DNA from: Paramyrothecium sp. XJ0827
Lineage: Eukaryota > Ascomycota > Sordariomycetes > Hypocreales > Stachybotryaceae
Direction: 5' to 3'
Assembly (NCBI GenBank): GCA_020881915.1
Contig: JAJFPB010000008.1
Span: 1,550,001 to 1,614,000 of the forward strand
Length of the DNA: 64,000 bases
A program made the translations under genes and the position numbers. The notes beneath the pieces were generated by a model that was not told where the DNA came from, searched no databases, and was given only the letters and a program-made list of their open reading frames with translations. Positions 41,439-64,000 of this stretch are shown here, one piece after another (positions within the stretch are counted from its first letter, which is position 1; each line of letters begins with the position of its first letter).

Positions 41439-42587
41439 CTCCTAGGTACTAAGGATAAAAGACCTATTATTACTACTACTACTAAGGTTATATAATAGGC
41501 TACCTGGCTACGTAATTAGCTTGACTACTACAGCGGCTTATATAGACCTATATTAGATAATATATATTATTATATACTAAGGAATTTGTTTATATGTCTT
41601 TATGACTACAAGTAGGATTAAGTAGAATAACTAATTTTATAGTAAGCTTCTTAGGGAATAGATATTATTAATTTAAATAAGTTAGATTTACTTAATTATC
41701 TACTATAATAATAAGAGCTTAGTAAATTATATCTCCTTAGCTAGATACTTTATTTTCTTTATACTTCTCTTGATCTTTAGATTATAGGCCTTATTTTTTT
41801 TAAGAAAATATAACTTATTTCTAAATTTACTTAGATTCTCTTTTATTTTATTAGAGCTAGTTTTCTTTTATAGTTCTTAAATTATATTATAGCTTATACT
41901 TATTTTTATATTTACTTTAGCTATCTTAAGATCTTCTATATATTATATTAGTTAGTATTTAGCTTTACTAGCTTTCTTTACTTAAGTAATTTTACTTATT
42001 AGGGCTTACTCTAGATTTAATATAGAAATTTAAGAGATCTTAATAAATATTAAGATTAAAAGTAGAAGTATAGCTTCTTACTTTAGTATTCTTAATAAAG
42101 AGAGATTTTAATTATAATAAGGTAGAAATAAGTAGATTTTTATATTACTATTTATTAAATAACTTTACTACTATAATTTAATTTAACTTTATTAAAGTAA
42201 ATAATATATATTACTATAGAACTTAAGTATTAACTTTAGCTTTATTACTAGTATTACTATAGCTATAGCTATAAGACCTTAGTAGTATAGTAATATCTTA
42301 ATAGCTCTATTAAGTTCTTATATATATAGGCTAATTATAAGTTTATAAGTTCTCTTTTAATTATATATATATTAGATTAATAATTAGAAATATATATAGT
42401 AAAATAGATAGCTTAAGTCTTATAAGTACTTATAATATATTATATTTATTATAAATATCTTTATTATTAACTTTATTATTATTATATTTAAGGTTCTAGG
42501 TATTAGATCTCCTTATTAAATTATTTTTATTATATTTAGGTCCCTATTTAAGATTCTTAAATTTAGGTTATTTTAATAAATTTTTTA
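41439..42587 (-). repeat. 1.15-kb repeat, copy C (inverted)
   Basis: Reads, in reverse complement, as a copy of the repeats at 46.5-47.5 and 48.5-49.6 kb. It begins CTCCTAGGTACTAAGGATAAAAG and contains the reverse complement of the 'AAGCCGCTGTGGTAGTTAAGC' word (41510-41540). It ends with the complement of the AACCTAAATTTAAGAATTTT end. It includes a segment also present in copy B but missing in copy A. Its nature is uncertain; an LTR or a transposon fragment are both possible. Confidence 0.7.
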
Positions 42588-43995
42588 ATAATAAATATAT
42601 ATATATAATAAATATAATAAAAAACTTAATTCTTAAAATATTATAAATTATTTAATTAATTAAAATTAATTATTATATTTTTATTAAAAGATTTTTATTT
42701 TTATTTTATATATTTATATATTATAACTAGACTTATTATATATATTTTATTATTATTAAATTAATAGTTTTAATTTTTTATTATCTTATTTTAATAATTT
42801 AATTATTATTTATATATTTATATTTATTTAATTAATTAATTTTTAGTCTTTTATAATTATTTTATTATTATAAAAAAGAATTTCTTTAATATTAATATTA
42901 GAAGGGCTTTTTTATATATATAGGAAGAGAAGGTAGGATTAGTGTATTTCTTATTATTATCTATCTTAGGAGTATATTATAAAATATAATATACTTTTAA
43001 AGAAGTATCTAAAGTAAATACTAAGTTAGTATTAACTTTATTTACCTAAATCTATAATTAATTTAATATTTTATTTATTTTTAAAAAATATAAATTTTAA
43101 TTTTAAATAATATTATTTTATATTAATTTATAAATAACTTCTTTAAAAATAAATTTAAGATCTTAATAATTAATATTAAAATTAGGATTTTATTTTTTTA
43201 TTATTATTAAGATTTTTAAAATTTTTAAAATAATTAAATTAAATTTATTAATAATAAATATTAAAATTTATAATTAAATATTTAATTTTAAAAATATTTA
43301 ATTTAATTATAATAATTTAATATATAATATAAAAAATAAAAAATCTTAATTTTAAAAATATATATTATAAAGTATTTAATTAAATATTATATTATTTAAT
43401 TATTAGTTTTTTTAAATAATTTAAAGGAATTTATATTTAGTAATTAAAGTAAATAAAATAATATATAAAATATAATAATTTTATTTTTTTATAAAAATCC
43501 TTAAAGATAATAAAATAATAGTTTTTATATTTATTTAATTATATATTAATTAAAGTACTTTAATTACTTAAGATTTATTTTATTATTAATTTAATTATTT
43601 TTAATAATTATAATAACTTAATTAATAAAAATATTTTTATAATATTAATTTAAGAAATAATATTAATTTATAATAATAATAAATAATAATAATTTTTAAT
43701 TCTTAATATTAATTAATTTAATTATTATATATTAGTTATAGTTCTTAAATTAAAATTTTTAAGATTTATATATTTTTATATTTATAATAATTATATTACT
43801 TATAATAATATCTATTATAAAGCTAATTTTATTAAAATTATATTAATTATTTAATTTAATATTATACTTTATAATTATATTTTTTATAAGTAAGAATTAT
43901 ATATATTTATTATAATTAAATCCTTATTTCTTCTAAGTACTAAAAATAAAAGATCTATTATTACTACTATTACTAAGATAATATAATATATTATA
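42588..43995. other. Extremely AT-rich spacer with inverted partial repeat end
   Basis: About 1.4 kb of almost pure A/T, too degraded to classify. At its right end (about 43,920-43,990) lies a partial, RIP-mutated copy of the same repeat end (TAAGTACTAAAAATAAAAGATC), cut off by the hAT miniature element at 43996. Confidence 0.5.
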
Positions 43996-44365
43996 CAGGC
44001 TTGGGAAGATTAGTTAACTAAAATTTAGTTAACTAATTTTTATTTAGAATAATTTTTAGTTAACTAAATTTTAGTTAGTTATTTTTAGAAGCTTTTTAAA
44101 AAACCTTATATAATAAGGGGCTTATATTATATTATCTATTTTATAGCTTTTATATATATTAGACTTTAATCCCTTTATTATAAGCTATATATAGTATTTA
44201 TATATATAATAGATCTTTATATATAGCTATATATATATAATAATATTAGCTGAATAAATTTTAGTTATTCTGAATAACTAATGAATAACTAAAAATTAGT
44301 TAACTAAATTTTAGTTAACTAAAAATTAGTTATTATTCAATTAGTTAACTAATTTCCCAAGCCTG
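43996..44365. mobile_element. hAT miniature element (370 bp), TTAGTTAACTAA type
   Basis: Terminal inverted repeats: left CAGGCTTGGGAAGATTAGTT, right complement CAGGCTTGGGAAATTAGTT. Subterminal parts hold several TTAGTTAACTAA palindromes joined by AAATTT spacers. The interior is AT-rich and non-coding. The 8-bp flanks (ATATTATA and ATTTATTA) do not match, so the duplication is degraded or the ends recombined. Confidence 0.75.
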
Positions 44366-44613
44366 ATTTATTATAAGCTCTACTATAACTTTTATAAGCT
44401 ATAGTATATATAATTATTTATAACTATAGTATATATATATAGTATTTTATAGTTATATATATAACTTAGTTATAATATATAAAAATACTAAAGTAAATTA
44501 AGTAACTTATTTAAGTTAACTAAAAATAAGTTAACTAAAATTAACTTAACTTAAAATAAGTTATAAGTTAATTTAAGTTAACTTAGATTAAGTTAACTTA
44601 TCTTCCCAAGCCT
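44366..44613. mobile_element. Partial hAT miniature element (right end only), TAAGTTAACTTA type
   Basis: A right terminus TTCCCAAGCCTG ends at 44613. It is preceded from about 44490 by AAGTTAACTTA-type palindromes. No matching left terminus is found to its left. It abuts directly on a truncated hAT transposase copy (starting ATAATAGCCCTTATATTAG), so it probably inserted into that copy. Confidence 0.55.
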
Positions 44614-45571
44614 GATAATAGCCCTTATATTAGATCCTAGGTATTGATTACGGCATTTTGAACCTAGGGAAATATTATATCATTATCCTACTATTAAATC
44701 AGATGCTATTAAGCTAATTACAGTAGAATATAATAAGTAAGTAAATTCCCTATATTATATATATATATATATAACTAATATTATTTATAGGCTTAAAGGG
44801 CCTTCTAATACTACTAGATCTTTTAATAAACTGGCATATAATAGCCCTAGGCCTATATCTTCTAAAGGCTCTATACCTACCTTAGAAGATAAATTATATA
44901 TAGATAATACTAATAATAGTAATAAATTATCTTTATATTTTAAAGATGAATATATTCCTAAGCATATAAGTTATTTATATTATTTTTTCTACTAGTAATA
45001 ATATTATTACTAAGTAAAGGTCTTGATTATATCTAGATATAGTTAGGGAATTGATATTATTAAAGAGCTAGAAATATAGGGATTTTAAGAGTTTAAAGGA
45101 GGATTTAAATTAGTATTATATAGTAACTATTTTCCTTACTTTTATAGTATTTATATAGCTAGTTCTATAGTATTTATATAGCTAATTATATAGCTAATTA
45201 TATAGCTAATTATATAGCTAATTATATAGCTATTAAAATTAAAGTGCAGTTTAGAGCGAATTAGAGCCTAAGGAATTATTTAATTTTAACAATACTATAT
45301 ATAGCTATTACATATATATTTAAATAGATTTAAAAAACAATATATATAATAATTATATAAAAGATTTATATAAATATTTATAGATATATAAATATTAACT
45401 ATAGCTAGTTATATAGTATTTTAAACTAAGGTAAAGTTTATAGTAAATTAGAGCTTAAGAAATTATCTAATTTAAGAAGTACTATATATAGCTATAGTAT
45501 GTATATATAATAACCAATATTTGGTTATTATAAGTCAACCAATAATTGGTTAACCAATCTTCCCAAGCCTG
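44614..45571 (+). pseudogene. RIP-mutated hAT transposase fragment with right terminus
   Basis: An inverted partial copy of the 53-59 kb hAT element. It covers the end of transposase exon 9 (LDPR region), exon 10 and the last exon, then about 185-bp subterminal repeat units and a terminus TTCCCAAGCCTG at 45571. Against the intact copy, differences in the first 150 bp are C-to-T (for example GGCATCGATT to GGTATTGATT). Its subterminal palindrome is TTGGTTAACCAA, not the CTAGTTAACTAG type of the intact copy. A 12-bp tandem (GCTAATTATATA, four units) lies at 45181-45228. Confidence 0.75.
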
Positions 45572-46516
45572 CTTTATATTAGTTTATTTATTTAAATAGG
45601 TTCTAGCTCTTTTATATATAAGTTTAAATAAATAAAAACTTTACCTTTTTTAATATTCTTACTAAATATATAATTAGATATATAATATAGCTAATTATAT
45701 TATATTATTTTTATATTTCTTTACTTTTATTATTATAGTAATCTTATTAAATAGGGACTTTTTTCCTTATTATTATAGTAGCCCTATATTATTAGGATAT
45801 ATATATATATATATATTTTTATTAATTACTTTAGTATTTACTTCTTATTATAAAGAAATAAGTATTTTACTTTATTTTATATTTTCTAGTTATTCTTTTT
45901 TCCTTTAAGTAATATATCTATAAATATTAAATTTATATTATTAAAGCTTAATATATATATATTCTTATTATTAGCTAATCTATAGATCTAATAATATTTA
46001 CTTATTAAGAATAAAGTATATTAAAAATATTATTATATATTATAATTAGTAATTATATTTCTATATATTTATAATAATATTTAATTTATTTATTTTACTT
46101 ATTATTTATAGATATAAATTACTTAGTAATTAAATTAATATATTTATAAGAGAAGATTATTACTTTATATAAGTAATTAGTAATAATAAAGAAGAAGAAA
46201 ATATAGATTTAGTATATCTTTATAGAACTTATATATATTTTACTTAATTATTTTAATTATTTTAAGTTTATTTATTTTTATAATTTATAAAATATATTTT
46301 ATTTAAGTTATATGAAATTAGTAGTATTAAATAAAAGTAATAGTTCTTATTTTAATTATATTAATAAAATATATTATATTAAATATATTAAAAGTAATAA
46401 TATATATATTAATATATTACTAGTATTATTTCTATTTATATATTAGATTCTTAAGTACTAAATTACTTTATTAAAGAGCTTCTTATTAAATTAATATAAG
46501 TAAGTAACTTTATTTA
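45572..46516. other. AT-rich degraded sequence
   Basis: About 0.95 kb of AT-rich sequence between the hAT relic and repeat copy A. No open frame or recognisable terminal repeat; probably an old mutated element. Confidence 0.4.
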
Positions 46517-47500
46517 TTAAGAAATTTATTAAAATAACCTAAATTTAAGAATTTTAAATAAGGACCTAGATATAATAAAAATAATTTAATAGGGAAATCT
46601 AATACCTAGAACCTTAAATATAATAATAATAAAGTTAATAATAAAGATATCTATAATAAATATAATATACTATAGGCACTTATAAGACTTAAGCCATCTA
46701 TTCCAACGGGAACTTAATAGAGCTATTAAGATATTACTACACTACTAAGGTCTATACTAAACGAACCTTGTAGCTGTAGCTGTGGCAATGTTAGTAGTAA
46801 AGCCAAAGTTAATATAAGTTCTTTAGCAATATACGTTACCTGGCCTCAACAAAGTTAAATTAAACTACTTGAAGAATAGCAGTATAAAAATCTGCTTATA
46901 CCCTGCCTCGTCGCAGCCAAAATCTCTATTTATCACTAACACCAACACCAGAAGAGCTACCTGACCTGCTGCAATAACCGATCCTCAAGATACTCTAATA
47001 GTTATTAATTAGTCTTTAAAGCCTATAGGTAAGGACCCTTAAAGACTATAAGTACTATTTCCATATACTAACTAAATTAATATATAGAAGCCCAAGTTAT
47101 AGCTAAGGGAGATATTAAAGATAGCTTAACTATTAGTAAGGTCTAGTAACTAAAGAAAAGTACTATAGATCTAGCTAAGAGATAAGAACTAGACTATATC
47201 TAAGATATAACTAATTAATCTAAGAATAAGAAGCCTAGTAAGGTTAATAGGAAATTATTTAAGAGTATAATAAAGAGATTAGAAAAGGTATAAGATAAAC
47301 TAAAGCTCTTACTATTATAAGAGATAGTTAAGTAAATTCAACTTATTCTAATTAATGATATTAAATTCTTGTTATATAATAATATATATTATCTAAAGTC
47401 TGTATAAGCCGCTGTGGTAGTTAAGCTGATTACGTGACCTATTACATAACCTTAGTAATAGTAGTAATAATAGGTCTTTTATCCTTAGTACCTAGGAGGA
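46517..47500 (+). repeat. 1-kb repeat, copy A (least mutated)
   Basis: Direct repeat of copy B. It runs from TTAAGAAATTTATTAAAATA to TATCCTTAGTACCTAGGAGG. It keeps many C and G (CCAACGGGAACTTAATAG, CCTGCCTCGTCGCAGCC) where copy B has T and A, so it is the least mutated copy. It is about 170 bp shorter than copies B and C because an internal segment is absent. No protein was recognised; an LTR-like or 3'-element fragment is possible. Confidence 0.75.
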
Positions 47501-48459
47501 GTAACTTTATTTATAATATATAATTATATTATTATTACTTAAAAGGTAATAAAAAATCTAATTATTTTTAGTAGATTTAATTTACTTATAATATATAAGA
47601 GAAAGGTAAATAATAATTTATATATTCTAGAATTTATTAAATAAGTTCTTTTAAAGTACTTTAAGAAATAAATATAAATAAAAAAAATAAAAGAAGAATA
47701 ATAAGAATATAAAAAGCTTTAAAAATAAGTTTTTTTGAAAGAAATTCTTCTTAAAGAATAAAAAAGAAAAAGATTTTAAGAAAGTAATATTCTTTTTAAA
47801 TATAGAAATAAAGAATTTTAGGGCTAAGTTCCTTTTTAGAAATAAAAAAGAAAATAAGAAAATAAAGAATTTTAAAAAAAATAAGCTTATTTAAATTTAT
47901 TTTAGGTATATATAAGATCTAGATCTATTAATTAACTATTTTTAAAATAATTACTTATTTTTATATAATTTTATAAAGTATATAAGAAGAAATAAATTAG
48001 TTTTTTTTATAGGAGGTACTTTTTATAGTTATTTCTATTTTAAGTAATTAAGTAAATAATATAAATAAATAGAGAAGAATATATAATTATATAATTTATA
48101 GTATTTAATAATTATATTAATTTAATATATAATATTAATTATTTATTTAATATATTATAAATTTTTAGATTTCTTTAATTTCTATATATTACTTTAAATA
48201 TAAATATAAAGTATATTAAAATTAATAAATCTTATAAGTACTATATTTAGGTTTATTTTTATTATAGTATTTATAGGATTATTACTTCTATTAATTTAAT
48301 TTATTTTTATTATTTTATATTATTTATAAAATTAATATAGTATTATAATATTTATTATAAGTTATTTTTTAGTTATAGTACTTAATTTAATAAAGTACTT
48401 ATATAATAATAATAAATCTATATAAATTATAAGAAGTACTTTAGAGATTATTAATTATA
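47501..48459. other. AT-rich sequence between repeat copies A and B
   Basis: About 960 bp, A/T-rich with purine-rich stretches (GAAAGAAATTCTTC-like, 47,690-47,900). If A and B are the long terminal repeats of one element, this would be its shortened interior. No coding remnant was recognised. Confidence 0.35.
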
Positions 48460-49615
48460 TTAAGAAATTTATTAAAATAACCTAAATTTAAGAATTTTAA
48501 ATAGGGACCTAGATATAATAAAAATAATTTAATAGAGAGATCTAATATCTAGAACCTTAGATATAATAATAATAAAGTTAATAATAAAGATATCTATAAT
48601 AAATATAATATATTATAGGAACTTATAAGGCTTAAGCTATCTATTCTAATAGGAACTTAATAGAGCTATTAAGATATTATTACACTACTAAGATCTATAC
48701 TAAATAAACCTTATAGCTATAGCTATAGTAATACTAGCAGAAAAGCTAAAATTAATAATACTAAGTTCTTTAGTAATATATATTACCTAGCCTTAATAAA
48801 GTTAAATTAAACTACTTAAAGAATAGTAGCATAAAAATCTACTTATACCCTGCCTCATCGCAGCTAAAATCTCCTACAGATCTATTTATTACTAATACTA
48901 ATACTAAAAGAGCTACCTAACCTACTATAATAACTAATCCTTAAGATATCTCTTAAGAAGCTAGAATCTACTTTAAAGCATATAGGTAAGGACCTTTAAA
49001 GACTATAAGTACTATTTCTATATACTAACTAAATTAATATATAGAAGCCTAAGTTATACCTAAGGGAGATATTAAAAATAGCTTAATTATTAATAAGATC
49101 TAGTAGCTAAAGAAAAGTACTATAAATCTAGTTAAGAGATAAGAACTAGGCTATATCTAAGATATAGCTAATTAATCTAAGAATAAGAAGTCTAGTAAGG
49201 TTAATAGGAAATTATTTAAGAGTATAATAAAGAGATTAGAAAAGGTATAAGACTAAATACTAGAGTTAGAATATTAGGCCTTAAGCCTAGCTAGTTAGGC
49301 TAACTACCTACTACAAGTATAGTAGGGTACTAACTAGAATATATCCCTAAAGCTCTTGCTATTATAGGAGATAGTTAGGTAAATTTAACTTATTCTAATT
49401 AATAATATCTATTTCCTAAGAAGCTGCAAGATTAGCTGTTCTACTTAATCCTGCTTGTAGGCATAAAGATAAACCAAATTCTTGTTATATAATAATATAA
49501 TTATCTAATATAAGTCCATATAAGCCGCTGTGGTAGTTAAGCTGATTATATGATCTATTATATAATCTTAGTAATAGTAGTAATAATAAGTCTTTTATCC
49601 TTAGTACCTAGGAGG
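48460..49615 (+). repeat. 1.15-kb repeat, copy B
   Basis: Direct copy of the 46.5-47.5 kb repeat with the same two ends. Relative to copy A it shows many C-to-T and G-to-A changes on both strands (CCAACGGGAAC versus CTAATAGGAAC; GCTGTGGCAATG versus GCTATAGTAATA). It carries extra internal segments around 49255-49345 and 49410-49480; the second is shared with copy C. Confidence 0.75.
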
Positions 49616-51421
49616 ATTATTAATTATATAGTAATTATTTTAAATATACTTATAATTATAATACCTAAATTAAATTCTTTTTATTATATTATAGATTTTT
49701 AATATTGGTATATTATATATAATCTTTTTATATTTTATAAAGAACTAATATAAAATATTCCTTATTAATTAAAAAGCTAGCTTTAATTCTTTTAATTACT
49801 TTTTAGTTCTAAGAATAATTAAAAAACTAATTTAAGAGCTTATATTCTTATTATTTATTAGAGAGCTATTTATAAAGATATATAGCTTAAAGTAGTTTAA
49901 ATCTAATATAATAAACTTTAGTTCTTTATTTAAATATATTATTTATTACTTTAGTTTTATATTAAATCTCTTATAATTTTTATTTATAGAAACTTATTAT
50001 AATCTTATTACTTTAAATAAATTAAATATAATTTCTAGTTATATAATACTTATTATTTAAGTATTTTTAATATATTATAACTTATAATTTATATTCTTTA
50101 GTTTTAATTTTATTAACTTAAGTAACTTAATTTATTTTTTTTAAGTAAAGTAAATTATTATATTTTATATTATAACTTTTCTACTATTAAAGTCTAAATA
50201 TTATTATTTAAAAAGTTATATTCTAGGCTTTATAAGAAATTCTACTACTTATAATTAGCTTTTTTTTATTATAAATATCTTATTAAATAGACCTAATATA
50301 TTATTTATTTATATACTAATAAAACTAAATTTAATTAAATTTTTATTTAAAATAAGAAAATAAGAATTATAACTAAATATATTTATATATAGGTACTTTA
50401 AAAGATATATATAGTATATTTTATATTAGTAAATACCTATCTTAGTAATTCTATATAGTAACTTAATAATATATATAGTTATATTTAATAAGTAACTTTA
50501 TTTAAGTTCTTTAGGGAGCTATATATAAATAAGGTATTATAATTTAATTTTTAATTATAAATATATTTATATAATATTTCTTAAAATTAAAATATATTCT
50601 TTAGAGTATATAAGTAATAGTATTAATATTATAATAAAGTACTAACTATAGTATTAGATTATAAATAATTAAATTAAAATAGTTTTTTATTTTAATTATT
50701 ATATTTTTATATTATAAATTAGATGTTCTTATATAGTTTTTTTTGGTAAATCTTTAATTTTATAAATAAGTTATATTTTAAAGATTTAATTAATATAAAT
50801 TATCTAATTAAATTAAAGAAATTTAAAAATACTTTTTTTATAATTATTGAATTTTAAGTACTATAGAAGCTTTAAATAACTTATTTAAAATTATAATTAC
50901 TTCTTATATATATAGTATTAAAACCTTCTTATATATATTAATTTTCTTTTATATAATAAATATATTATTTAATTTATTAATTTAATTAAAATTAATTATC
51001 TAAAGTAATATTAAAGTATTTTATTTTTCTATATTTTATAAAAAATTATATATATATTTTAGGCTTATTCTTTAATTTCTTTAAATATTCTTTTTTATAT
51101 AATATTACTATTTTTAATCTATTTAAAGCTTATAACTCTAGTTTATTATTCTTTATTATTAGTAGTAGTACCTATTTTAAGATTATAAAATTTCTTTAAT
51201 ATAATTTAATATATATAAATTAAAATATCTTTAGATTATTAAGTATTTTAATTATTATATTATAAGAGTTATTTAATAAGATTTAATATAATTTAAATTA
51301 TTTTTTTAATTTCTTTATATTAAGATCTTATTCTATAATAATAATTTAATATATTATTTATATTTAAATTATTTCTAATAACTAATATAATTAATATTTA
51401 TTACTTTATATAGTATTTTAT
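49616..51421. other. AT-rich degraded repeat sequence
   Basis: About 1.8 kb of strongly mutated AT-rich DNA. Word pattern and length suggest old retroelement coding sequence, but no motif could be read with confidence on either strand. Confidence 0.35.
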
Positions 51422-51871
51422 TATAACTGGATACTAATAGGGTAGTTAGGTAGAGGGGCACCAAGAGGTCTATTATAGCTATCCTATTATAGAGACTAAA
51501 GCTTACTAGCTTTAGGATTTACTATGCTAATACACTGCTAAATACCTACTGATCTAGTGGTATTATATAACCCTAGCTCTAGGTTCCTTATAATAACTAT
51601 TTCCTCCTACTAAAATAATTAGCTTAATTATAATTATATAACCTTAGCCTTATACCTATATAATCTAAGCCTTGTAGCTATACCTATATAAGAGCTCTTC
51701 CTCTTGCCCTAGTTTTCTTTCTTTTCTTTTCTTTTCTTTTCTTTTCTTTAATAATCTTAGATCTAGTTAATTTAAGATTAGAGATTATTTATATTTTATT
51801 TAATATATATAAGTAGAATATAAATAATCTTTAACTTTAAATTAACTAGATCTAAGATTATATATTTTAGT
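51422..51871 (+). repeat. Less-mutated island with TATA-like box, (CTTTT)n and inverted repeat
   Basis: About 450 bp that retain more G and C (for example AGGTAGAGGGGCACCAAGAGG) than the surroundings. TATATAAG at 51685-51692 is followed by a short C/T-rich stretch and a pentanucleotide CTTTT run (about 51716-51749). An inverted repeat follows, with arms of about 46 bp at 51752-51797 and 51815-51860 (outer word TAATCTTAGATCTAGTTAAT). It could be a long terminal repeat with its promoter, or a small foldback element. Confidence 0.5.
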
Positions 51872-53141
51872 GAGGTAAAGTATTATAATAGTAGGTTATA
51901 GCCTATACTTTACTTCTAATTTATTAGGGAGTTATATATAGGGCTTTATTCTTTATATAGGCTATAGCCTAATTTTATTATATTTCTATTAGTTATCTTA
52001 TTATATATAAGGTATTACTTATTTAGTAGTTATTTATAATAATATTACTTATATTATATTACTAGTAATAAATAATAAATTATTACTATATATATATATT
52101 TATTTTAGTAAATAGTAAGTTATTATTATATATATATATTTATTTTTCTTATAAAGTCTTTCTATATTTACCTCTCTCTCCCTTCTCTTTCTCTCCTTTA
52201 TATCTCCTTATATATATATTACTAGGTAAATAGCTAGCCCCCCTTTATATATATTTTTTCTCTTTTATATCTTATATCTCTTTCTTATATTATTCTCTAA
52301 TTAATTTCTTATTAATATAAGTTCCTAGAATAATTACTTATTTCCTTACTTAGGCTCTTTACCCCCTAACTAATAATATCTTTTTAATAAGATATAGTAG
52401 GAAATAATACCTAAGACTTATATCTATTTTACTAATTAAGTATAATATTCTTACTTATATACCTTAGGTACTTCTTCTTATTACTTATTCTCCTTAGGTA
52501 CTCTTTTTTAGGGCTTATTTTCTTTCTATTTTTTCTTTATATTATTTACTAATATAGTTTTACTTAGCCCCTAAAATATCTATTATATACTTAATTCTAT
52601 TAAGGAAAATAATAATAATAATAATAAGAATAAGAATAATAATACTACCCCTACTATTATATTTATACCTAAGTTCTCCCAGTATATCTTTATTTTATTT
52701 AGTTCTCTACCCCTTCTTATTAATATTTATATCTTTTAATATACTACCTCTATATATTATAGAAGAAGTATAATAATAGTAATTTATTATATAAACTAAA
52801 GAAAATTAATTATTACTTTAGTAATAATTTCTTTATAACTTCTAGTTATTATATATAATATAAGTATTAAAAAATACTTTATAACCCTATAAATTATTTC
52901 TTTTTTTATTCTTATTAGCTTATTACTAATTCTTTAGTAGTTTTATTTTAGTCTTAAGACTAACTTAGATCTTCTTATTTACTAGTATTATAAGCTTATA
53001 AAGTAAATTAAAATAACTAAGGTTACTAAAGGATCTAATAAATATATTTATATATTCTTAGTATCTTTTTAAATAGAGCTTATTAGGGCTAATTAGTAGC
53101 TAATTTAGGATATTAATTTCCTTAATATAATATATAGCTAT
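51872..53141. other. AT-rich sequence left of the hAT element
   Basis: About 1.27 kb with T/C-rich blocks (52160-52560) and no readable gene. It is continuous with 59440 onward once the hAT element and one target duplication are removed, so at least its right end belongs to the same older element. Confidence 0.4.
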
Positions 53142-53149
53142 AAGTATAG
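53142..53149. repeat. Target-site duplication of the hAT element (left)
   Basis: AAGTATAG immediately before the left terminus; the identical octamer follows the right terminus at 59432-59439. Eight bases is the length made by hAT transposases. Confidence 0.92.
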
Positions 53150-55433
53150 CAGGCTTGGGAAGACTAGTTAACTATTTTATAGTTAACTAACTATTAACTA
53201 ACTAACTATAAAATAGTTAACTATTTTATAGTTATAACTATTTTCTAGTTAACTATTTTATAGTTATAACTATTTTCTAGTTAACTATTTTATAGTTAGT
53301 TAGTTAATAGTTAGTTAACTATAAAATAGTTAATTTATAATATATAAATATAATTATATATATATATATATAGATATATAGTTTAAATAACTTTATAAAT
53401 ATTATATAATTAACTAAAGAATTTATATATAGACCTATAAAATTCTATATGAATTTCTTATATAATTATAATATATATAGTACCTTTTAATAGATATATA
53501 TATATATATTATAGCTAAATATAGTACCTTTTAAATTATATAATTCCTTAGGCTCTAATTTACTCTAAATTACACTTTAGTTTAAATAGCTATATAATTA
53601 GGTTTAGAAAATATATATATATTTAAAAATATTTATATAAATCTATTATATAATTATAATATATATAGTTTTTTCTATAATATATATATATATCTATTAT
53701 AGCTATATATAGTACTTTTTCAATTAAATAATTCCCTAAGCTCTAATTTGCTCTAAATTGTACTTTAGTTTAAATAGCTATATATCTAGCTATAGAAAAT
53801 ATATATAGATCTATAAATATTTATATAAATCCTTTATATAATTATATTATATATAGTAATTTCTAATTATTATATATATATATATAATAGCTAGATATAG
53901 TACTTTTAAAACTAGATAATTCCTTAAGCTCTAATTCGCTCTAAACTATACTTTAAGTTAAATAGCTATATAACTAGCTATAAAAATACTATAAAATACT
54001 ATAAAAAATACTATAAAAATAGGGAAGATAATAACTATATAATACTAATTTAAATCCTCCTTTAAATTCTTAAAATCCCTATATTTCCAGCTCTTTAATA
54101 ATATTAATTCCCTAACTGTATCTGGATATAATTGGGACCTTTGCTTAGTAATAATATTATTACTAGTAGAGAACATAGCCTCAATAGCAGCAGATGTAGC
54201 CGGAATAGCTAGATAATGCCTAGCTAATATAGATAATATAGGAAATCAATCAATATATAATTTCCACCAAGCTAATATATCTGTCTATATAATAATTAAT
54301 AAATATATAATAATAATAGTAGTAAAATAGGGAAAATAATATAAATAACTTACATGCTTAGGAACACATTCATCTTTAAAATATAAAGATAATTCATCAC
54401 TATTATTAGTATTATCGATATATAATTCATCTTCTAAGGCAGGCGTAGAGCCTTTAGAAGATATAGGCCTAGGACTATTATCTGCTAGTTCATCAAAAGA
54501 TATAGCAGTATTAGAAGGCCCTTTAAGCCTATAAATAATATTAGTTATATATATATATATATATATAATATAGGGAATTTACTTACTTATTATATTCTGC
54601 TGTAATTAGCTTAATAGCATCTGATTTAATAGTAGGATAATGATATGATATTTCCCTAGGTTCAAAATGCCGTAATCGATGCCTAGGATCTAATATAAGG
54701 GCTATTATATAGGATTTATAGCTAGTAAGACCCTTAGGGCCTCTAGCTACTAGCTTATTAGGGAAATATTTCTCTAATTTAGCTAGGCCCTTAGAAATAG
54801 AGGATCCTAAATGGGTAAAAAAGTCCCCCTATATATATATATATATATTAGTATATATTAATAATAATAATAATAATAAGAAGAAAATAACTTACATATT
54901 CCTTATAATTAGGATTAGTGACCATTTTAGTACACTTTTCCTTATATCGATTTAAGTCCTTATATAATAGATATATATATAAGAGACTTTCTGGAAGTGT
55001 TATATATAGCTGGCCTTGTAATATTTCTGAAGGCCTTAAAAAAACCCTAAATAGGTCGGCTAGGGCCTGGGTTTTTTCCCAGTCAATTTCGGTTAGGAAT
55101 ATATTTTTAAATTCCTTATTAGTAGTATTCCTATATATATAGGAAAGAGGCTCTTTTAATTCAATAGTAGCCTCAAGCATAAAAAAGGTTGAATTCCAAT
55201 GGGTTACTATATCTATATATTATTATTAGTAATTATATTATAGTATATATATATATATATATATATATAAGAAGTTTAGAAATAACTTACCTATAGGAAT
55301 CCGTTGTTTTTTAGTTTCTAAGGTATTAGAATCCTTATATTTTAAAATAGCCTCTTCTAATAGTTTTCTAGGCTCTTGACTATATTTTATAAGAGAAACT
55401 ATTCGACGAATTCGGCTTAGAAGATCTATATAT

Positions 55434-55549
55434 AATAGATATTAGTAAATATATAAATATATATATATATAATAGATATTAGTAAATATATAAATATATA
55501 TATATATAATAGATATTAGTAAATATATAAATATATATATATATAATAG
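55434..55549. repeat. Intronic tandem repeat, about 37 bp x 3
   Basis: Three units of AATAGATATTAGTAAATATA plus a TA-rich tail lie in tandem in the intron between transposase exons 6 and 7. They are nearly identical, indicating recent slippage. Confidence 0.7.
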
Positions 55550-55886
55550 TTATTATATATATAAATTAGTAAAGGGGATAAAATATAGAAAATAATATAC
55601 CTTTTAATTCTAAATCTTCTATTTCTGCTGCTGGATTTCTATTTAATTCATCTATAGTTGAATGAATATAAATAGATAAATTAGTAGCTGTTTTTTCGGA
55701 TAATAAAAAATCCGATAATATATCTTGTGCTACTAAATTAATTATATGTGCTGCACATCGAATATCGGCCTCAAAAGTCGTTGATGTTCCGGTTATATTT
55801 AAATTCGATTTATATGCTTGTAAAAACGTGTTATTATTCGTAGCATTATCTCTAGTAATACTATAATATAGTTAGTTATATCTATC

Positions 55887-55917
<31 letters not shown>

Positions 55918-56650
55918 ATTTATAATATATATAACAAATAATAAATAAATAGAAAACTTACCTTAAAATCGTAAATTCTGTAATACTAGAATAAGGGGAT
56001 AAGGCAAATAGGAATTCCTTATAAATATTAAGGCCTGTATGAGCCTCTTGAAGCTCATTAAAACCTATATAATAGTTATATATATATATATATATAATAT
56101 AATAATATAATAGTAAATAATATAATAAAATAAATAACTTACTTATAAGCTTATAGTGTAGGGTAAAATTACTATCTAGAAAAATTGCAATAATTCCTAG
56201 ATAGGAAGCCCCTGTATTTGAAGACCATATATCGAATGTAAGGGAAAATGCCCCATTAGTTCGAATATTATCTTCAAATTGGCTATTTAGGGCCCTAAGG
56301 CCCTTTTCGAAGGTATTAGATAATAATAATCGTATTTTCTTCCTATTAATAATAGGGGCCTCACTAAATAGATATATATATATATTAGCTTATATATAAT
56401 AAACCAAGTAAATAAAAATAATTATAGTAATTTAGGAGATATAGGGTAGTGACTAAGGAATTATATATAGGGAAGTGTTATATAATTACTATAAAAATCC
56501 TTACTTACCTATTATAATAGGATAATAGGCTTTGAAAAGCTGGCGAATCCATTATATTAAAAGAGATATTATTTTCTATAAGGAAATTTAGGACCCTATT
56601 AAGGGCTTCCTTTTCAGAAAATCGATTTGCTATAGCTATAATATCCCTAG

Positions 56651-57351
56651 CAGGCATGGGAATGTAGTTAACTATTAACTATTTAACTACAATGTAGTTA
56701 ACTACAAAATAGTTAACTACAATATAGTTAACTACAAATAACTACTAACTATAATGTAGTTAACTACAAAATAGTTAACTATAAAATAGTTAACTACAAA
56801 ATAGTTAACTACAAAATAGTTAACTACAAAATAGTTAACTACAATATAGTTAACTACAATATAGTTAACTACAAATAACTACTAACTATAATATAGTTAA
56901 TTACTAAATATAATAATAAATATTATTATAATATCTATTATATATAGAATAATATAATATACTATAGGAAATTAAAAATAAATTATATAATACTATATAG
57001 GATTTAAAAATAATTATATTAATATTTTTAATAATAAAAATAATATATATTAATTTTAATATTTATTATTATATTATAAAGAATATATAACTAAGATCTA
57101 TATAATATTTAGATATTTATAAGCTATATATAAATAGTAGTTATAAATTTTAGTAAAATTAGTAGTTAACTACTAACTACAATATAGTTAACTACAAAAT
57201 AGTTAACTGCATTGTAGTTAACTACAAAATAGTTAACTATTATGTAGTTAACTACAATGTAGTTAATAGTTAAAAATAGTTAACTATTTGTAGTTAACTA
57301 TATTGTAGTTAGTAGTTAACTACAAATAGTTAACTACTCTTCCCAAGCCTG
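56651..57351. mobile_element. Nested hAT miniature element (701 bp), GTAGTTAACTAC type
   Basis: Left end CAGGCATGGGAATGTAGTTA, right end in complement CAGGCTTGGGAAGAGTAGTT. Perfect 8-bp duplications ATCCCTAG lie at 56643-56650 and 57352-57359. Both ends are packed with TAGTTAACTACAAAA units (more than ten on the left). The interior is AT-rich and non-coding. It lies in exon 3 of the hAT transposase, and excising it with one duplication restores the frame. Being CAGG-ended, it is probably mobilised by the same or a related transposase. Confidence 0.9.
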
Positions 57352-59431
57352 ATCCCTAGGGCGTTTACTAAGGGTTTGAGGTATTATAGAGCTAGTAGTA
57401 GTTGGGCTTAAGAGATCGGCTTCTATAATAAATTAGTATATATATATATTTAAATAGATATATATATATATATATATATATATATCTAAAATAGGGAAAA
57501 AAGGAAATTAACCTACTTCTTTTTCTAATAGATTCTGAACTTTTATTATAAGCAATTTCAATATGCTTATTTTGATAATGCCGAGCTAGATTAGGAAGGC
57601 TACTATTTAATTTACTAGCTTTATAAGTAGCCTTAAAATCGCAACTATATATATATATATATATTAGTATTATATTAGTATTATATTAGTATTATATTAA
57701 TAGATATAAATATAAAGAAAGAACTTACATAGTACATTTATATAGTATCTCTCTTTCCTTATTATTATTATAAGGTAAAAGAACCCTAGTAAATAGATTA
57801 TTTGTAAATATATATACTGATGTAGGTAGTAGTTGAAATTTAGGGTCAAAATAGGCAGCTGTTGCAGCTGCAGAGCTACTAGTAGTAGATGTAGGTGCCC
57901 TAGGGGTCTCAGGGGCCCTAGGGGTCTCTTCTAGGTCCCTACTACAATTAAATTCTATAAGGGAAATAGTTGAGGCCTCTATAGGGTCTATAATTAACTG
58001 GGTATCAGGCATAGAGGCCTCAGAGCCACTAATAGATTGAAGGTCATCCGAATAGTTAGACATATTGAATATATATATAGATATATATAGAAAATAGGGC
58101 AGTTATAATAGATAGATAGTAGTAGAGTAAATAGATAGTTGGTTGTAGAAGAAGAATAGGATTTCTAGAGAGAAATTAAGTCTTCTTTTATAGAAATTTC
58201 CTCCTTACTAATTCCTAGGAATTCCTTTCTCTTTAAAAATCAAGTATTTCCTATTTCTAAGCATTAGAAATCAATTCCTTCCTATTTTATCTGCCGGCAT
58301 TTTCAGCTGCTTTGGCATTGATAAGGAATTTAGATTTATCCTATAGTAGGTTATATAGTTATTAAAGCTAATGCGGGCACCAATAGAAATCCCTATAGTA
58401 AATGTAGCTAGTTATGTAGCTAAAACCGGATATTAACCGAATGTAGATCTTTTCCTAATTAACAAATTATATATATTTATATAGCTCTAGGATTAGGTAT
58501 AATTATATATATTTTTATATATTTTTACCTACTATAATTAGCTAGTTATATAGCTATTTAAACTAAAGTATAGTTTAGAGCGAATTAGAGCTTAAGGAAT
58601 TATCTAATTTTAAAAGTATTATATATAGCTATATTATATATATAATAATTATATAAAAGATTTATATAATCTTTTATAGATCTATATATATTTTTTATAG
58701 CTAGTTATAAGACTATTTAGGATAAAGTGTAGTTTAGAGTAAATTAGAGCTTAAAAAGTTATCTAATTTCAAAAGTACTATATCTAGCTATTATATATAT
58801 ATATATATAATAATTAGAAATCATTATCTATATTATAATTATATAAAGGATTTATGTAAATATTTTTAGATCTATATATATTTTCTATAACTAGATATAT
58901 AGCTATTTATACTAAAGTATAATTTAGATCAAATTAGAGCCTAAGGAATTATCTAATTTTAAAAGTACTATATATAGCTAAAATAAATATATATATATTT
59001 ATCCGAAAATATTTTATATATTATAATTCTATAATAGATTTATATAAATATTTTAAGATCTAAATATATTTTCTATAGCTAGATATATAGCTATTTAAAC
59101 TAAAGTGTAATTTAGATTAAATTAGAGCCTAAGGAATTAATTAATTTAAAAAGTACTATATATAGCTATAGTATATATATATATATATATATTTTTATAG
59201 GCTTATATATAAATTCTTTAGTTAATTATATAATATTTATAAAGTTAGTTTATATATATATCTATATATATATATATAAAAGTACTTATATATATATATT
59301 ATAAATTAATTAGAAAATAGTTAACTAGAAAATAATTAACTAAAAAATAGTTAACTAGAAAATAGTTAATTATAAAATAGTTAACTAGAAAATAGTTAAT
59401 AGTTAAATAGGTAACTAGTTTCCCAAGCCTG

Positions 59432-59439
59432 AAGTATAG
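59432..59439. repeat. Target-site duplication of the hAT element (right)
   Basis: AAGTATAG directly after the right terminus CCTG, identical to 53142-53149. Confidence 0.92.
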
Positions 59440-62400
59440 TCTTATTAAATTAAAGAAGAAAATAACTATAAGTATTATTACTATTTTTTTATTATATTTT
59501 CTTTATACTAACTTTTTCTTTTTTTAGGAGATCTAAGGCTATTACTATATCTAGCTTAAATAAAAGTATCTTAATACTACTATAATTTATTTTTATTTCC
59601 TTCTTAAGGCCTTATATTATAAGTAAGTTACTTAGTAGTATTTTATTATACTTAGTATAGAAAATAATAATATAGGAATAATAGGGTAGTAATTAACCTA
59701 GAATACCTTTAAGAACTATATTTATAAAGTACTTTTCTAGGTTTTTTTTTATAAGATTAATTAGAATTTATAATAACTTTATTATCTCTTAGGTACCTAG
59801 AAGATTAGGTATATCTACTATAAGATAAAGTAATTATATATATTCTATTTTAGTAGTATATTTTAGACCTAAGATTACTTTTTTATTTTTATTTTTATTT
59901 TATTTTATTCCCTTTAGAGGAAGAAGATAATTTATCTTATTTTATTAGTTATTTTTTACTATAGTTTTTTATTTAATTAATAGTTAGGCTTTATTAGTAT
60001 TTATTTTTTTTAATATTATATCTTAGTTAGGTAATACCTAGTTATTTTTTATTTTTTAGTATATAGTTATTACTTTTATAGCTATATAATTAATTATTTT
60101 CTTTTATTATACTTATATAATCTATCTCTTTTTCTAGATTTAATAAGTATCTATAACTTTAGTAATATTTTATTTACTTTTTAGCTCTTCTTCTTATAAG
60201 AGTCTTTAAACTTATAAAGTAATTTTAGGACTATAATATCTCTAGCCTTTACTTATTAATTAAACTTTAATAGCTAGCCTTTCTACTTAATAAGGTAATA
60301 AGTCTTCTACCTAATAATACCTTTATTCTAGATCTTCTTAATTTTCTATTAATTTTCTTTCTCTTATAGATTAGGTATTAGTATTATTTTATTATTTTCT
60401 TTCTTCCCCTATTAATTCTATAGCTCTAGGAGGCTAATATAGAATATATTATATAGTTTACTATACTTTTTTAGTAAAGTAATATAGTAGATCTATTTTT
60501 TAATATATACTAAGATATAAAAAGGGCTAATATATTTAGGGACTAGTTTTTTCTTTTTTTCCTTAAATTAAAAGTTCTTTATACTTAGCTTAATTAAGTT
60601 CTCCTAATTTAGTATTAATAATTTATATATAATATTATATTCTTTTATTACCTAAGTAGCTACTTCTTCTTAGTTTTTTATTAATTAGGTCCTAAACTTA
60701 AGTAGCTTTTATAATTACTATTATATACTAGGGATTATAGTATATTAGCTATTAACTTCTTTATATACTTAAAAAGAAGGCTTATAGTTTAGTAATACTT
60801 TATTAGCTAATATCTTAGTAAATATATTTATTATATTATTATATATAAATTCTATAATTTATAGTAATTAAGTCTAATTTACTTACTAGATATTAATAAA
60901 GTAATATAAGTAGTACTTTAATATTTAGTTTATTTTTTTTATTTACTTATTAATTTATAGGTAAAATATTATAAATAATCTCTATTTAATTTATATTTAG
61001 TAATATAGTTCTAATTAGAACTTACTTATAAATAGTAATCCCTAATTAATTATAATTTCTTTAGGTATATTATACTTAAGTTCTATATTATAGTAGAAGA
61101 TTTCTACTAAATCTATAATATTAATTTTACTACTTATAAAAATAAAAAAAGAATACTTAGTATATTAGTTTATAATTACTAAAATTATATTAACTTCCTA
61201 GCCTTACTAATTAATAATAAGTAGTTCTATAATAAAATCTATTAATATCTCTTCCTATAGTCCTTAGGGTATTAGTAGAGATTCTAGTACTTTATATAAG
61301 TAGTATCTCTTTATAATTACCTATTAATATATAATATAACTTTTAATCTAATTAGTTATATTCTTATAAATTTCTTATTAATAGAACTTCCTTTAAATTA
61401 ACTCTACTATTTATACTTAACTAAAGTAATCTACTAATAGATTATTATAGTATAAGTAAAGTAGCTCCTACTTTATACTTAGCTCCTTTAGTATATAAAT
61501 TTAGCCCTTATATTTAATAAATCTAAATAAATCTATAGATTATTAGGAGGGTTTTTATTTTTATATTTCTAATATATTATTAGTTCTAATTTATTATATC
61601 TTAAGATAATACTACTATATCTTATATATAATATCTATTAGCTCTTCTAAGGGTTCTTTTCTTTAGATTACCTTATTATAGAGGGCCTTCTTTATTTCTT
61701 TATAGGGGAGATATTATTTATAATTAATATTTCTATTAATCTAATTTACTATTTCCTTATAAATTAATATCTTATTATTACTATTTTTATAAATATAAAC
61801 TTAAGATATTTTTAATTTATATAAAGATCTTTTATTATATTTAGATTAGTTTATAACTTAGGATCTCTTCTTCTATAAAGGTCTTTTATTTAGTTACTAG
61901 AAATTACTATTTTTTATTAGTACTACTCTTATTTCTTATATTAGTACCTTCTATACTTTTTTTATTTTACTTCTTAGCTTAGAAAGTAGGTCTTTATTTA
62001 GTAATATATTATTTTTATAATTAGATTTTCTTAATAATTTATTTACTAAATTACTTTTCTTTATATAGTACTTAATTATAAAATTAAAGAATATAAGAAA
62101 TATATACTATTTTACTTATTTTCTATTTAGTTTCTACTAGCTTATAAATCTCTATAGGTTTTAGTAATTTAATTATATTTCTACTATTTTCTCTAGCCCT
62201 TTAAGGTAATATTATTAGTATTTAAATAACTTAATAATAGCTATAAGTTCTTAGTCTAAGGTCCTATAATTTAATTTTAGGCCCTTAAACTTTCTTAATT
62301 AAAATATAATTAAATAGTAGTTCTCTTTATTATTTAATTATAATAATATACTAGCTATTATAAACTTTAATATATTAATCTTTAGTTTAATTTACTACTT

Positions 62401-63350
62401 TAATTTAAAGTATTAGAGTAGTAATATCTCTTAGAAGGCTATAATTAAATATTAAAATACTCTTAATTTCTTTTTTATAAGTATAATTAGCCCTAGTTTC
62501 TTTCTTATTCTTCTTATTACTCTTTAGTAGTAAATATAATAGTACTATAATACTAATATAATTATAAATAAATCTCTAATAAAAATTATAGAACCCTAAG
62601 AATATTTATATATTATAGTAGGTTTTTAGTTCTTCTTATTAAGTAATTATTTCTACTTAGCTTAGATCTATAGTAATCTCTTTATTTAATAAAATAAAAT
62701 CTAGGAACTTAATTTAGTATTTATAGAAATTATACTTAGAGGGTTTTATAAATAACTTTACTTTTTATAGTCTCTTAAGTATTTATTTAATATATTTAAT
62801 ATAAATCTCTTAGTTCTTTAAAAAAAAAAATATTATTTAAATATATAATATATATAATATTAATAAGTCCCTAAAGTACTTAGTAAATATATATTTAAAA
62901 TATAGTAGAGGTATTTATAAGATTAAAAGGTATTATTAGGTACTTAAAATAACTATATTAGATATAAAATATAGTTTTCTACTTATTCCTTTCTACTATA
63001 TAGATCTAGTAATAAATATTTTTAATATTAATTTTTATAAATTAAATATATTTTTAGATCTAATTAAGAATCTCTAATATTAAGGGAAATAAATAATAAT
63101 TCTTCTTTATTACTTTATTTAATCCCTAGTAATTAATATATAGTTATAGGCTTCTATTCTTCTTAGATATAAATAAAATAGATATACTTATAGGGCTTTT
63201 TAATAAGTAAATAAAGCCCTTAGTTAGATTCTTTTTTAAGTATTCTTATAATTCCTTAAGTTTATTCTAAGATAGTAAGTATATTAGCTTATAAAGGGGC
63301 TTATATTCTTCTATAATATTAATAATATAATCTATAGCCTTATATCTTAG
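59440..63350 (-). pseudogene. Ty3/gypsy-like retrotransposon polyprotein relic, RIP-mutated
   Basis: On the minus strand a mutated reverse transcriptase can be read. Around 63160-63057 the frame gives KKNRSL-stop-LYINY-stop-GLNKV...PLILEILN, matching the gypsy motif KKDGSLRLCVDYRGLNKVT..PLISEILD. Further on (about 62,830-62,900) lies a YLNN-like remnant of the YLDD box after one frame slip, and then KPSKYNF...VKFLDFIL-like words. Stops are where Arg or Gln codons would become TAA/TGA/TAG by C-to-T change. RT lies on the right and later domains (integrase) would lie to the left, at about 60-61.5 kb, but are too mutated to read. The 5' end is beyond the window. Confidence 0.75.
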
Positions 63351-63820
63351 CAGGCTTGGGAAACAGGTTAACCTATTAACCTATAACCTAAAATAGGTTA
63401 ACCTGGATCAGGTTTAACCTATTTCAGGTTAACCTATTTCAGGTTAACCTATTTTAGGTTAACCTATTTCAGGTTTAACCTATTTTAGGTTACTTATATT
63501 ATATTATATATATAATTAAATAATATATATAAAATAAATCTCTATTCTTATAAGGCCTTTATTTATATAATATTATATAATAGAGCTATTATATAGATAT
63601 AGATATAGATATCTATATATATTAGATAACTTATTTCAGGTTAACCTGGCCAGGTTTAACCTATTTCAGGTTTAACCTGATTTAGGTTAACCTATTTCAG
63701 GTTTAACCTAATTCAGGTTAACCTATTTCAGGTTTAACCTAATTTAGGTTAACCTATTTCAGGTTAACCTAAAATAAATCAGGTTAACCTGGAATAGGTT
63801 AACCTGCCTTGCCAACCCTG
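63351..63820. mobile_element. hAT miniature element (470 bp), CAGGTTAACCTG type, not RIP-mutated
   Basis: Left end CAGGCTTGGGAAACAGGTTA, right end in complement CAGGGTTGGCAAGGCAGGTT. Perfect 8-bp duplications TATCTTAG lie at 63343-63350 and 63821-63828. Both ends consist of AGGTTAACCTATTTC units. It keeps abundant GG and CC in an otherwise C/G-depleted neighbourhood, so it arrived after the surrounding gypsy copy was mutated. Non-coding. Confidence 0.92.
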
Positions 63821-63828
63821 TATCTTAG

Positions 63829-64000
63829 TAAGATCTCTATATTTTTTACTATAAAGATATCTTAAAAGTTTATAAGTTCTATTAATAAGAAATTAATTTT
63901 CTTAGGATTTATTTCTACTTTATCTAGGAGTAGATATAGTTCCTTTATTACCTATACTAAGAAGATATATACTTATTTTCTTATTTCTTTATAAAATTAA
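63829..64000 (-). pseudogene. Gypsy-like relic, continuation to window edge
   Basis: The right side of the gypsy relic resumes after the miniature element and its duplication, with the same AT-rich composition. It continues beyond the window; the upstream pol and gag parts and the 5' long terminal repeat would lie to the right. Confidence 0.5.

What the first reader, a model, noticed from the sequence alone, without database searches (positions are those of the whole stretch)
43996..63820. hAT elements share a GTTAAC palindrome core but each has its own symmetric flanks
Six different ends carry arrays of 12-bp palindromes with a constant GTTAAC centre, and the three flanking bases differ by element: TTA-TAA (44.0 kb), TAA-TTA (44.6 kb), TTG-CAA (45.57 kb), CTA-TAG (53.15/59.43 kb), GTA-TAC (56.65 kb), CAG-CTG (63.35 kb). 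Changes are symmetric and repeated within the element, while the outer CAGGCTTGGGAA terminus is conserved. This looks like an element-specific subterminal code kept uniform by local copying. Possible roles are transposase-binding specificity, limits on cross-mobilisation, or escape from homology sensing by RIP. I know no described hAT family with this behaviour, but could not search.
Basis: partly seen in the sequence, partly recalled or inferred. Interest (0 to 1): 0.82.

Follow-up and report, generated by a model that had tools for sequence, protein, structure and literature searches.

The report
Centromere hATs with matched DNA-reading fingers
A family of jumping genes found in AT-rich blocks that look like the centromeres of one fungus-like genome is split into about eight types, each with its own version of a short repeated DNA signal at its ends and its own version of the few amino acids predicted to read that signal, while much of the rest of the element is nearly the same within each of two branches.

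Summary
GTTAAC palindromes, often 15 bp apart, fill the ends of hAT elements with 8-bp TSDs. Flank "dialects" differ between elements and match between the two ends of one element (27 exact-TSD elements, 0 of 20,000 shuffles as good). Symmetry is strong at the first two flanking bases (95%, 88%), partial at the third (55%), absent beyond; only 24 of 54 palindromes are full 12-mers. The new finding is a partner: an intron-rich hAT transposase. Within the main branch its body differs by 3-6% between dialects, but exon 2, a BED-type finger, mostly by 12-21%. The finger's loop before N-L-A-R-H holds the most variable of 721 windows in the protein and lines up by motif with base-contacting residues of Hermes (PMC10368747). 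Finger type tracks dialect in 18 elements (p 5e-5), with one chimera, mixed cases, and types with near-equal dialects. The body rejects two same-type copies as a clade (AU p 0.004), so backbones seem to recombine while finger and ends stay matched. Best reading: diversified transposase-end recognition types. RIP does not explain the types. Binding is untested.

The parts
53150..59431 (-). full-length hAT element E3 (dialect CTA/ATA, finger loop NSSLP), 6282 bp with a nested MITE; TSD AAGTATAG on both sides
   Evidence: ends and exact 8-bp TSD; exon order
53150..53320 (.). subterminal GTTAAC array at the 3' (gene-wise) end of E3, six copies
59320..59431 (.). subterminal GTTAAC array and terminus at the 5' (gene-wise) end of E3, three copies
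57731..58063 (-). transposase exon 1 of E3 (111 aa), ends in the first half of the BED-type finger
57512..57643 (-). transposase exon 2 of E3: BED-type finger with loop NSSLP before NLARH; 68-75% identical to exon 2 of the four better-preserved clade-I copies read, whose body exons are mostly 91-100%
54048..56648 (-). transposase body of E3, from part of exon 3 to the last exon, with AT-rich introns
54048..54245 (-). last exon with the hAT dimerisation domain (PF05699; Hermes match)
54246..54248 (-). in-frame stop before the last exon piece: the E3 gene is broken here
56651..57351 (.). 701-bp MITE of dialect GTA inside E3 (predicted exon 3); TSD ATCCCTAG; terminal 61-80 bp 95-99% identical to the full-length GTA elements on C14 and C11
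63351..63820 (.). 470-bp MITE of dialect CAG/TAG; TSD TATCTTAG; terminal 61-80 bp 95-97% identical to the full-length element C7:2444677-2449775
43996..44365 (.). 370-bp MITE-like element of dialect TTA; no clean TSD
44515..44614 (.). right end of a truncated element with TAA-TAA and TAA-TTA palindromes; no finger partner found for this dialect
44603..45571 (+). 3' remnant of an element with a TTG right end: parts of transposase exon pieces p09, p10 and p12
41044..64000 (.). AT-rich block (GC about 6-26% per kb) with RIP-like dinucleotide make-up in which the elements lie; probable centromere edge

Best explanation
These are hAT DNA transposons and their MITEs. A pair of BED-type zinc fingers of the transposase reads each subterminal palindrome: the invariant N and R of the motif N-L-A-R-H read the invariant GTTAAC half-sites, and the hypervariable residues just before it set the preference for the flanking -1 to -3 bases. 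About eight recognition types exist in one genome, five in one branch (clade I) and three in another (clade II). The finger exon and both end arrays of a type stay matched, while the rest of the element is homogenised or exchanged between types by recombination. MITEs carry the ends of one type and so should be moved by that type's transposase. Shown here: the dialects, the end-to-end match, the finger differences, their association, and conflict between backbone and finger histories. Inferred: that the finger binds the palindrome, that the loop sets the flank, and that cross-mobilisation is limited.
For: 8-bp TSDs: 27 of 81 candidate end pairs exact, against 0-1 when displaced. Left-right dialect distance 0.120 in the 27 against 0.338 shuffled, 0 of 20,000. 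Symmetry reaches three flanking bases: 280, 261 and 162 of 295, then no more than chance. Three regions of divergence in the four comparisons within clade I: both extreme termini (about 41-63% identity in the first 200 bp and, for most, in the last 200-300 bp) and the exon-2 region (76-97%), against mostly 85-100% over the rest, introns included. Exon 2 against body: 11 of 44 against 14 of 599 codons nonsynonymous in E3 versus C7:2444677 (p 9.6e-8); p<0.05 in 13 of 15 clade-I pairs, the other two being the same-type pair B/C12 (0.72) and the CAG/TTG pair (0.35). Exon-2 codons 13-16 are the top four-residue window of 721, codons 14-17 tie for second. Finger type and dialect: 18 elements, same-type distance 0.160 (16 pairs), different 0.383 (137 pairs), p 5e-5. 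After four codes were written down, one full element and three finger/end pairs fitted cleanly (one on a single palindrome), two TTG-type pairs were mixed, and two pairs were of types not in that note. Same-type copies B and C12:2674435 are rejected as a clade by the body (AU p 0.004, lnL 50.6 lower), while in the exon-2 tree the four TTA copies lie on one side of a branch (support 64/85). [quoted passage not shown] N67-x-x-R70-H71 lines up with N-L-A-R-H here, by eye.
Against: No binding was tested. The code is not one-to-one: loops RSAQS and KGTQL both go with GTA, NSSLP and ITGIL/IAGIS both with CTA, and the TTA and CTA/TTA types are nearly alike; leave-one-out nearest neighbour is right for 13 of 16. 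Copy C4:203578-208613 has a TTG finger and 5' end but a TTA 3' end; it looks like a recombinant (TSDs differ, 3' end 93-95% identical to the TTA element), and that end was left out. Exon 2 also shows raised synonymous change in several pairs and dN/dS below 1, so positive selection is not shown. In Hermes two of the loop residues contact bases only by main chain. The finger misses Pfam's zf-BED cut-off (1 of 9 members, E 0.075). Same-type copies share descent, so the 18 are not independent. The pair tested was picked after its distances had been seen, and the two CAG copies do not form a group in the exon-2 tree.
Confidence: 0.78

Rival explanations
1. Ordinary subfamily descent: types are old lineages whose ends and finger drifted, and the backbone looks uniform because gene conversion between neighbouring copies homogenised it; no selection for a match is needed.
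For: Same-type copies share ends by descent; synonymous change is raised in exon 2 in several pairs as well, as expected if only the backbone was homogenised; dN/dS in exon 2 is below 1.
Against: Exon 2 is flanked on both sides by far more similar sequence yet keeps its type, and the two ends about 5 kb apart keep the same type; the predicted base-contact loop is the most variable window of the protein.
Confidence: 0.17
2. RIP made the flank differences: CpA to TpA changes on both strands of a palindrome are symmetric and hit every copy (TTG-CAA to TTA-TAA, CAG-CTG to TAG-CTA), while GTTAAC itself has no CpA.
For: Within types, TAG/CAG and ATA/GTA mixtures and TTG to TTA changes fit RIP; stops of RIP type lie in the finger of C12:2674435; the DNA around is saturated (0 CA and 0 TG in 3,919 bp).
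Against: Between types there are transversions (C, G or T at -3; A or T at -2); the eight full-length elements keep (CpA+TpG)/(ApC+GpT) of 0.49-0.72; the finger loop changes with the dialect.
Confidence: 0.03
3. Arrays are only a by-product of replication slippage in AT-rich DNA and have no protein reader.
For: 15, 30-32 and 45-49-bp tandem units in the arrays.
Against: Arrays sit at the ends of TSD-flanked elements, both ends match, symmetry stops at three bases, and finger type follows.
Confidence: 0.02

Closest known systems
Hermes (hAT, housefly) BED finger on its left end (PMC10368747; section 7 and passages seen)
   Same: hAT dimerisation domain (E 5e-7); N-terminal zinc finger; two fingers on a quasi-palindrome; N-x-x-R-H in the recognition helix; several subterminal repeats
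   Different: Hermes binds AAGT followed by AT-rich DNA, sites irregularly placed; here a perfect GTTAAC core, often on a 15-bp grid, with about eight flank/loop types in one genome; zinc ligands by motif C-x2-C-x20-H-x4-H, against C51-x2-C54-x16-H71-x-C73
Tol2 and Ac (hAT), as described in passages of PMC10368747
   Same: subterminal repeats thought to be bound by the N-terminal finger; Tol2 has a palindrome AAGTACTT
   Different: no set of matched finger/repeat types on one backbone is described in what I saw
hAT elements of Fusarium oxysporum such as Folyt1, Hornet, Drifter and YahAT (PMC3599309, passages seen)
   Same: fungal hAT elements; this genome also holds many other hAT copies, mostly on C2 and C4
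   Different: the ten such loci fetched from C2 and C4 are 50-53% GC; the elements here are 22-27% GC, intron-rich and lie in AT-rich blocks. Not compared by sequence with the named families; that the host is a Fusarium is a guess
mariner elements that share one genome after losing transposase-DNA cross-talk (Lampe and others 2001; recalled, not read)
   Same: recognition divergence as a way for related elements to become independent
   Different: here divergence is concentrated in one exon and the end arrays, in several parallel types whose backbones seem to be exchanged

Membership tests
hAT superfamily DNA transposon | 8-bp target-site duplication | tested here: met
   27 of 81 candidate pairs exact; 0-1 in displaced or other-register controls
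hAT superfamily DNA transposon | hAT C-terminal dimerisation domain | tested here: met
   PF05699 E 1e-13, 51.3 bits against a cut-off of 21.4; Hermes chains E 5e-7
[quoted passage not shown]
hAT superfamily DNA transposon | DDE catalytic triad | not tested
   FDIWSS, RDNATNN and AIEAMFS look like the D, D and E motifs (recalled); only the third lies in an alignment made here (Hermes)
BED zinc finger | Pfam zf-BED above its cut-off | tested here: not met
   1 of 9 members at E 0.075, 13.5 bits against 20.6; no BED chain in the PDB profile search
BED zinc finger | C-x2-C ... N-L-x-R-H-x4-H motif at the N-terminus of a hAT transposase | tested here: met
   second C, N-L-A-R-H and last H invariant in the nine rows of alignment A1; the first C is lost or unread in some rows. 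Motif recalled and set on Hermes by eye
MITE | short, without transposase, TSD-flanked, ends shared with a full-length element | tested here: met
   the window MITEs at 56651 and 63351 pair with full-length GTA and CAG elements; several other MITEs had no clear single partner
centromere | CENH3 chromatin | not testable with these tools
   inferred from AT-rich blocks, one on each of C7 to C15; in F. fujikuroi the main AT-rich region of each chromosome is the centromere (PMC3694855, passages). C4 with two blocks and contigs without one do not fit simply

The most novel reading that the evidence does not exclude
The types form a self/non-self recognition system of a centromere-resident transposon. 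Elements swap backbones but keep three matched modules (finger exon and two palindrome arrays), much as restriction or mating types do. The finger, bound to arrays of resident copies, also steers new insertions back into the centromere, so that the code governs both who moves and where.
Probability: 0.15. Interest if true: 0.95.

Novelty: new variant of a known kind. Interest (0 to 1): 0.78.

Why it matters
How a transposase changes the DNA it recognises without losing function is an open question, because protein and both ends must change together. Here one genome seems to hold about eight such states on two backbones, including a near-minimal pair (fingers with loops NSVHS and NLMHS differ at two residues of exon 2; their palindromes differ mainly at -2). 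That would give a ready-made table for BED recognition, and a natural case of transposon types becoming independent while still recombining, inside probable centromeres.

Tried and rejected
RIP as the source of the types: rejected (transversions, finger co-variation), kept as a source of within-type mixing. Positive selection by dN/dS: not shown (exon 2 dN/dS below 1 in all 15 clade-I pairs). Assigning exon 2 to a database finger family: Pfam and PDB gave no match over a cut-off (the top PDB hits look like chance). Relatives elsewhere: one search, one protein of 136 aa from a 1.2-kb contig at 46% identity, not followed. Host not identified. Literature: searches were seen as listings; three papers were opened in part (PMC10368747, PMC3599309, PMC3694855). 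In these I saw no hAT family with matched finger/repeat types and no centromere-confined hAT in Fusarium; most subscription papers are not in that library. Structure prediction was not tried because the finger spans two exons.

Rows dropped or chosen: three further fingers read (C7 loops KGTQS, GNAQL and NLVHL) were left out because no end could be assigned, as was the 3' end of the chimera C4:203578-208613; several elements are represented by one end (the ones, C15:1376045, C7:2441709). Copy B on C4 is placed in the TTA type by its finger, and by two end pieces that an inversion seems to have separated. The 27 elements were chosen for an exact TSD. In one search E3 ranks first for GTA MITEs only because E3 contains one; the C11 element likewise contains a TTG MITE. 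About two thirds of the termini found were not read with their flanks. Intactness of the copies other than E3 was not checked exon by exon.

Full report
What was checked. Just after 41.0 kb the GC content falls from about 50% to 6-26% per kb, with the dinucleotide marks of RIP; one stretch of 3,919 bp (59432-63350) has no CA and no TG. GTTAAC is far over chance (59 in the window, shuffle mean 14.4), and GTTAAC-N9-GTTAAC occurs 22 times with none in 100 shuffles. In all sequence then fetched, spacings of up to 70 bp between GTTAAC are 15 bp in 120 of 266 and 30-32 bp in 83 of 266.

What the units are. Paired ends with an exact 8-bp duplication show hAT elements: 27 of 81 candidate pairs match, against 0-1 in displaced or other-register controls. 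In the window, 53150-59431 is one 6.3-kb element (E3) with a 701-bp MITE inside it (56651-57351), and 63351-63820 is another MITE. E3 encodes, on the minus strand, a transposase in about a dozen exons with AT-rich introns; the last exon matches PF05699 (E 1e-13) and Hermes (E 5e-7). The gene is broken by the MITE, in predicted exon 3, and by one in-frame stop.

Where they are. CAGGCTTGGGAA occurs 152 times (reversed control 8). By my count of the places listed, 135 of 152 lie in one block on each of C7 to C15 and in two blocks on C4, and 17 lie elsewhere; the one of the 17 that was read (C1) has no GTTAAC in its 3 kb. Terminus plus GTTAAC occurs 122 times with control 0, and all 100 places listed are in the blocks (22 not listed). 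Transposase exon piece p08 gives 42 matches, 40 in or within about 8 kb of the blocks and two weak ones (25% identity) on C2; exon 1 gives 37, all in or within about 8 kb of the blocks. The three blocks read end to end (two on C4, one on C7) and the window's left edge are AT-rich with sharp edges, with some less AT-rich patches inside. In F. fujikuroi the main AT-rich region of each chromosome is the centromere (PMC3694855, passages). No CENH3 data were available, and C4 with two blocks and C1, C2, C3, C5 and C6 with none do not fit simply.

The code. In the 27 elements the flanks are symmetric at -1 in 280 of 295 palindromes (59% expected from base use), at -2 in 261 (64%), at -3 in 162 (30%), and no more than chance at -4 and -5. 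The two ends of an element share their dialect (mean distance 0.120 against 0.338, 0 of 20,000 shuffles). Half-sites are not pure: type CAG mixes CAG and TAG, type GTA mixes GTA and ATA, type TTG mixes TTG and TAG.

When E3's exons were compared with copies on C4 and C7, the body exons of the better copies were mostly 91-100% identical but exon 2, with a BED-type finger, was 68-75%. Full-length elements fall into two clades whose bodies differ by about 21-23%; within clade I bodies differ by 3-6%. Within clade I, identity to C7:2444677 is mostly 85-100% along the element, introns included, but about 41-63% in the first 200 bp and, for most, in the last 200-300 bp, and 76-97% around exon 2, least so for the TTG copy, whose exon 2 differs at only two residues. 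Over nine copies the most variable four-residue window of 721 is exon-2 codons 13-16, with codons 14-17 tied for second; the same window is first in clade I alone. [quoted passage not shown] Setting N-L-A-R-H here on Hermes N67-x-x-R70-H71 puts codons 14-17 on residues 63-66 and the constant N and R on the residues that read the core. This alignment is by motif; a profile search did not recover Hermes BED.

The match. Loop and dialect of the same element: NSSLP with ATA/CTA (1 element); NSVHS with TAG/CAG (2); NLMHS, NLIHS and NLIYL with TTG, mixed with TAG or TTA (4); ATGQS and ATGQL with TTA (4); ITTSHP and ITTSYP with TTA/CTA (2); RSAQS with GTA/ATA (2); ITGIL and IAGIS with CTA (2); KGTQL with GTA (1). 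Same-type elements are closer in dialect than others (0.160 over 16 pairs against 0.383 over 137, p 5e-5); nearest neighbours agree for 13 of 16, the misses being one TTG-type element that looks RIP-altered and the two of the CTA/TTA type. The one clear mismatch, C4:203578-208613, has unlike TSDs and a 3' end 93-95% identical to a TTA element, so it is best read as a recombinant.

Recombination. The TTA copies B and C12:2674435 differ by 5.1% in the body, more than 10 of the 14 unlike-type pairs of clade I, but by 4.5% in exon 2, where unlike types differ by 12-21%, the exception being CAG and TTG at 4.5%. A body tree that joins the two TTA copies is rejected (AU p 0.004); the pair had been picked after seeing the distances. 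In the exon-2 tree the four TTA copies form one side of a branch (support 64/85), so do the four TTG copies (84/95) and the two GTA copies, but the two CAG copies do not. The backbone therefore seems to move between types while finger and ends stay together. Synonymous change is also raised in exon 2 in several pairs, so backbone homogenisation, not proven positive selection, may explain much of the contrast.

MITEs. Over the terminal 61-80 bp, the GTA MITE in E3 is 95-99% identical to the full-length GTA elements on C14 and C11, and the CAG MITE 95-97% to the CAG element on C7. MITE C4:888028 is 97% identical to E3 over 37 and 78 bp, and MITE C7:2415503 99% and 89% to the TTA element. Others of the 17 compared had no clear single partner among the elements read.

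Verdict. The palindromes are real and type-specific, and the strongest evidence for their role is the co-varying finger exon. The family is hAT; a set of matched types on shared backbones, in probable centromeres, is a new variant in what I could search.

Noticed in passing
59432-63350: 3,919 bp with no CA and no TG dinucleotide (113 AC, 138 GT): RIP-saturated DNA between an element and a MITE that are only mildly affected, so these inserted later or escaped.
   Followed up: partly
G000 C4:195001-245000 and C4:865001-935000: The 1.02-Mb contig C4 carries two AT-rich blocks with these elements about 650 kb apart, while C1, C2, C3, C5 and C6 show none by terminus, exon 1 or p08; a join of two chromosomes, or a second or dead centromere, is possible.
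   Followed up: no
53396-53993 and 58633-59189: 188-bp tandem repeats (about three copies) inside both end arrays of E3; role unknown.
   Followed up: no
44515-44614; C7:2422255-2422654: A further dialect, TAA-TTA/TAA-TAA, in a truncated end and in a TSD-flanked MITE; no finger type was found for it.
   Followed up: partly
G000 C2 and C4: By my count, 116 of the 150 scored hAT dimerisation-domain matches are other hAT copies on contigs C2 and C4, many with long open frames, as might be seen on accessory chromosomes.
   Followed up: no
55427-55563: An intron of the E3 transposase holds a 37-bp tandem repeat of 3.7 copies at 97%.
   Followed up: no
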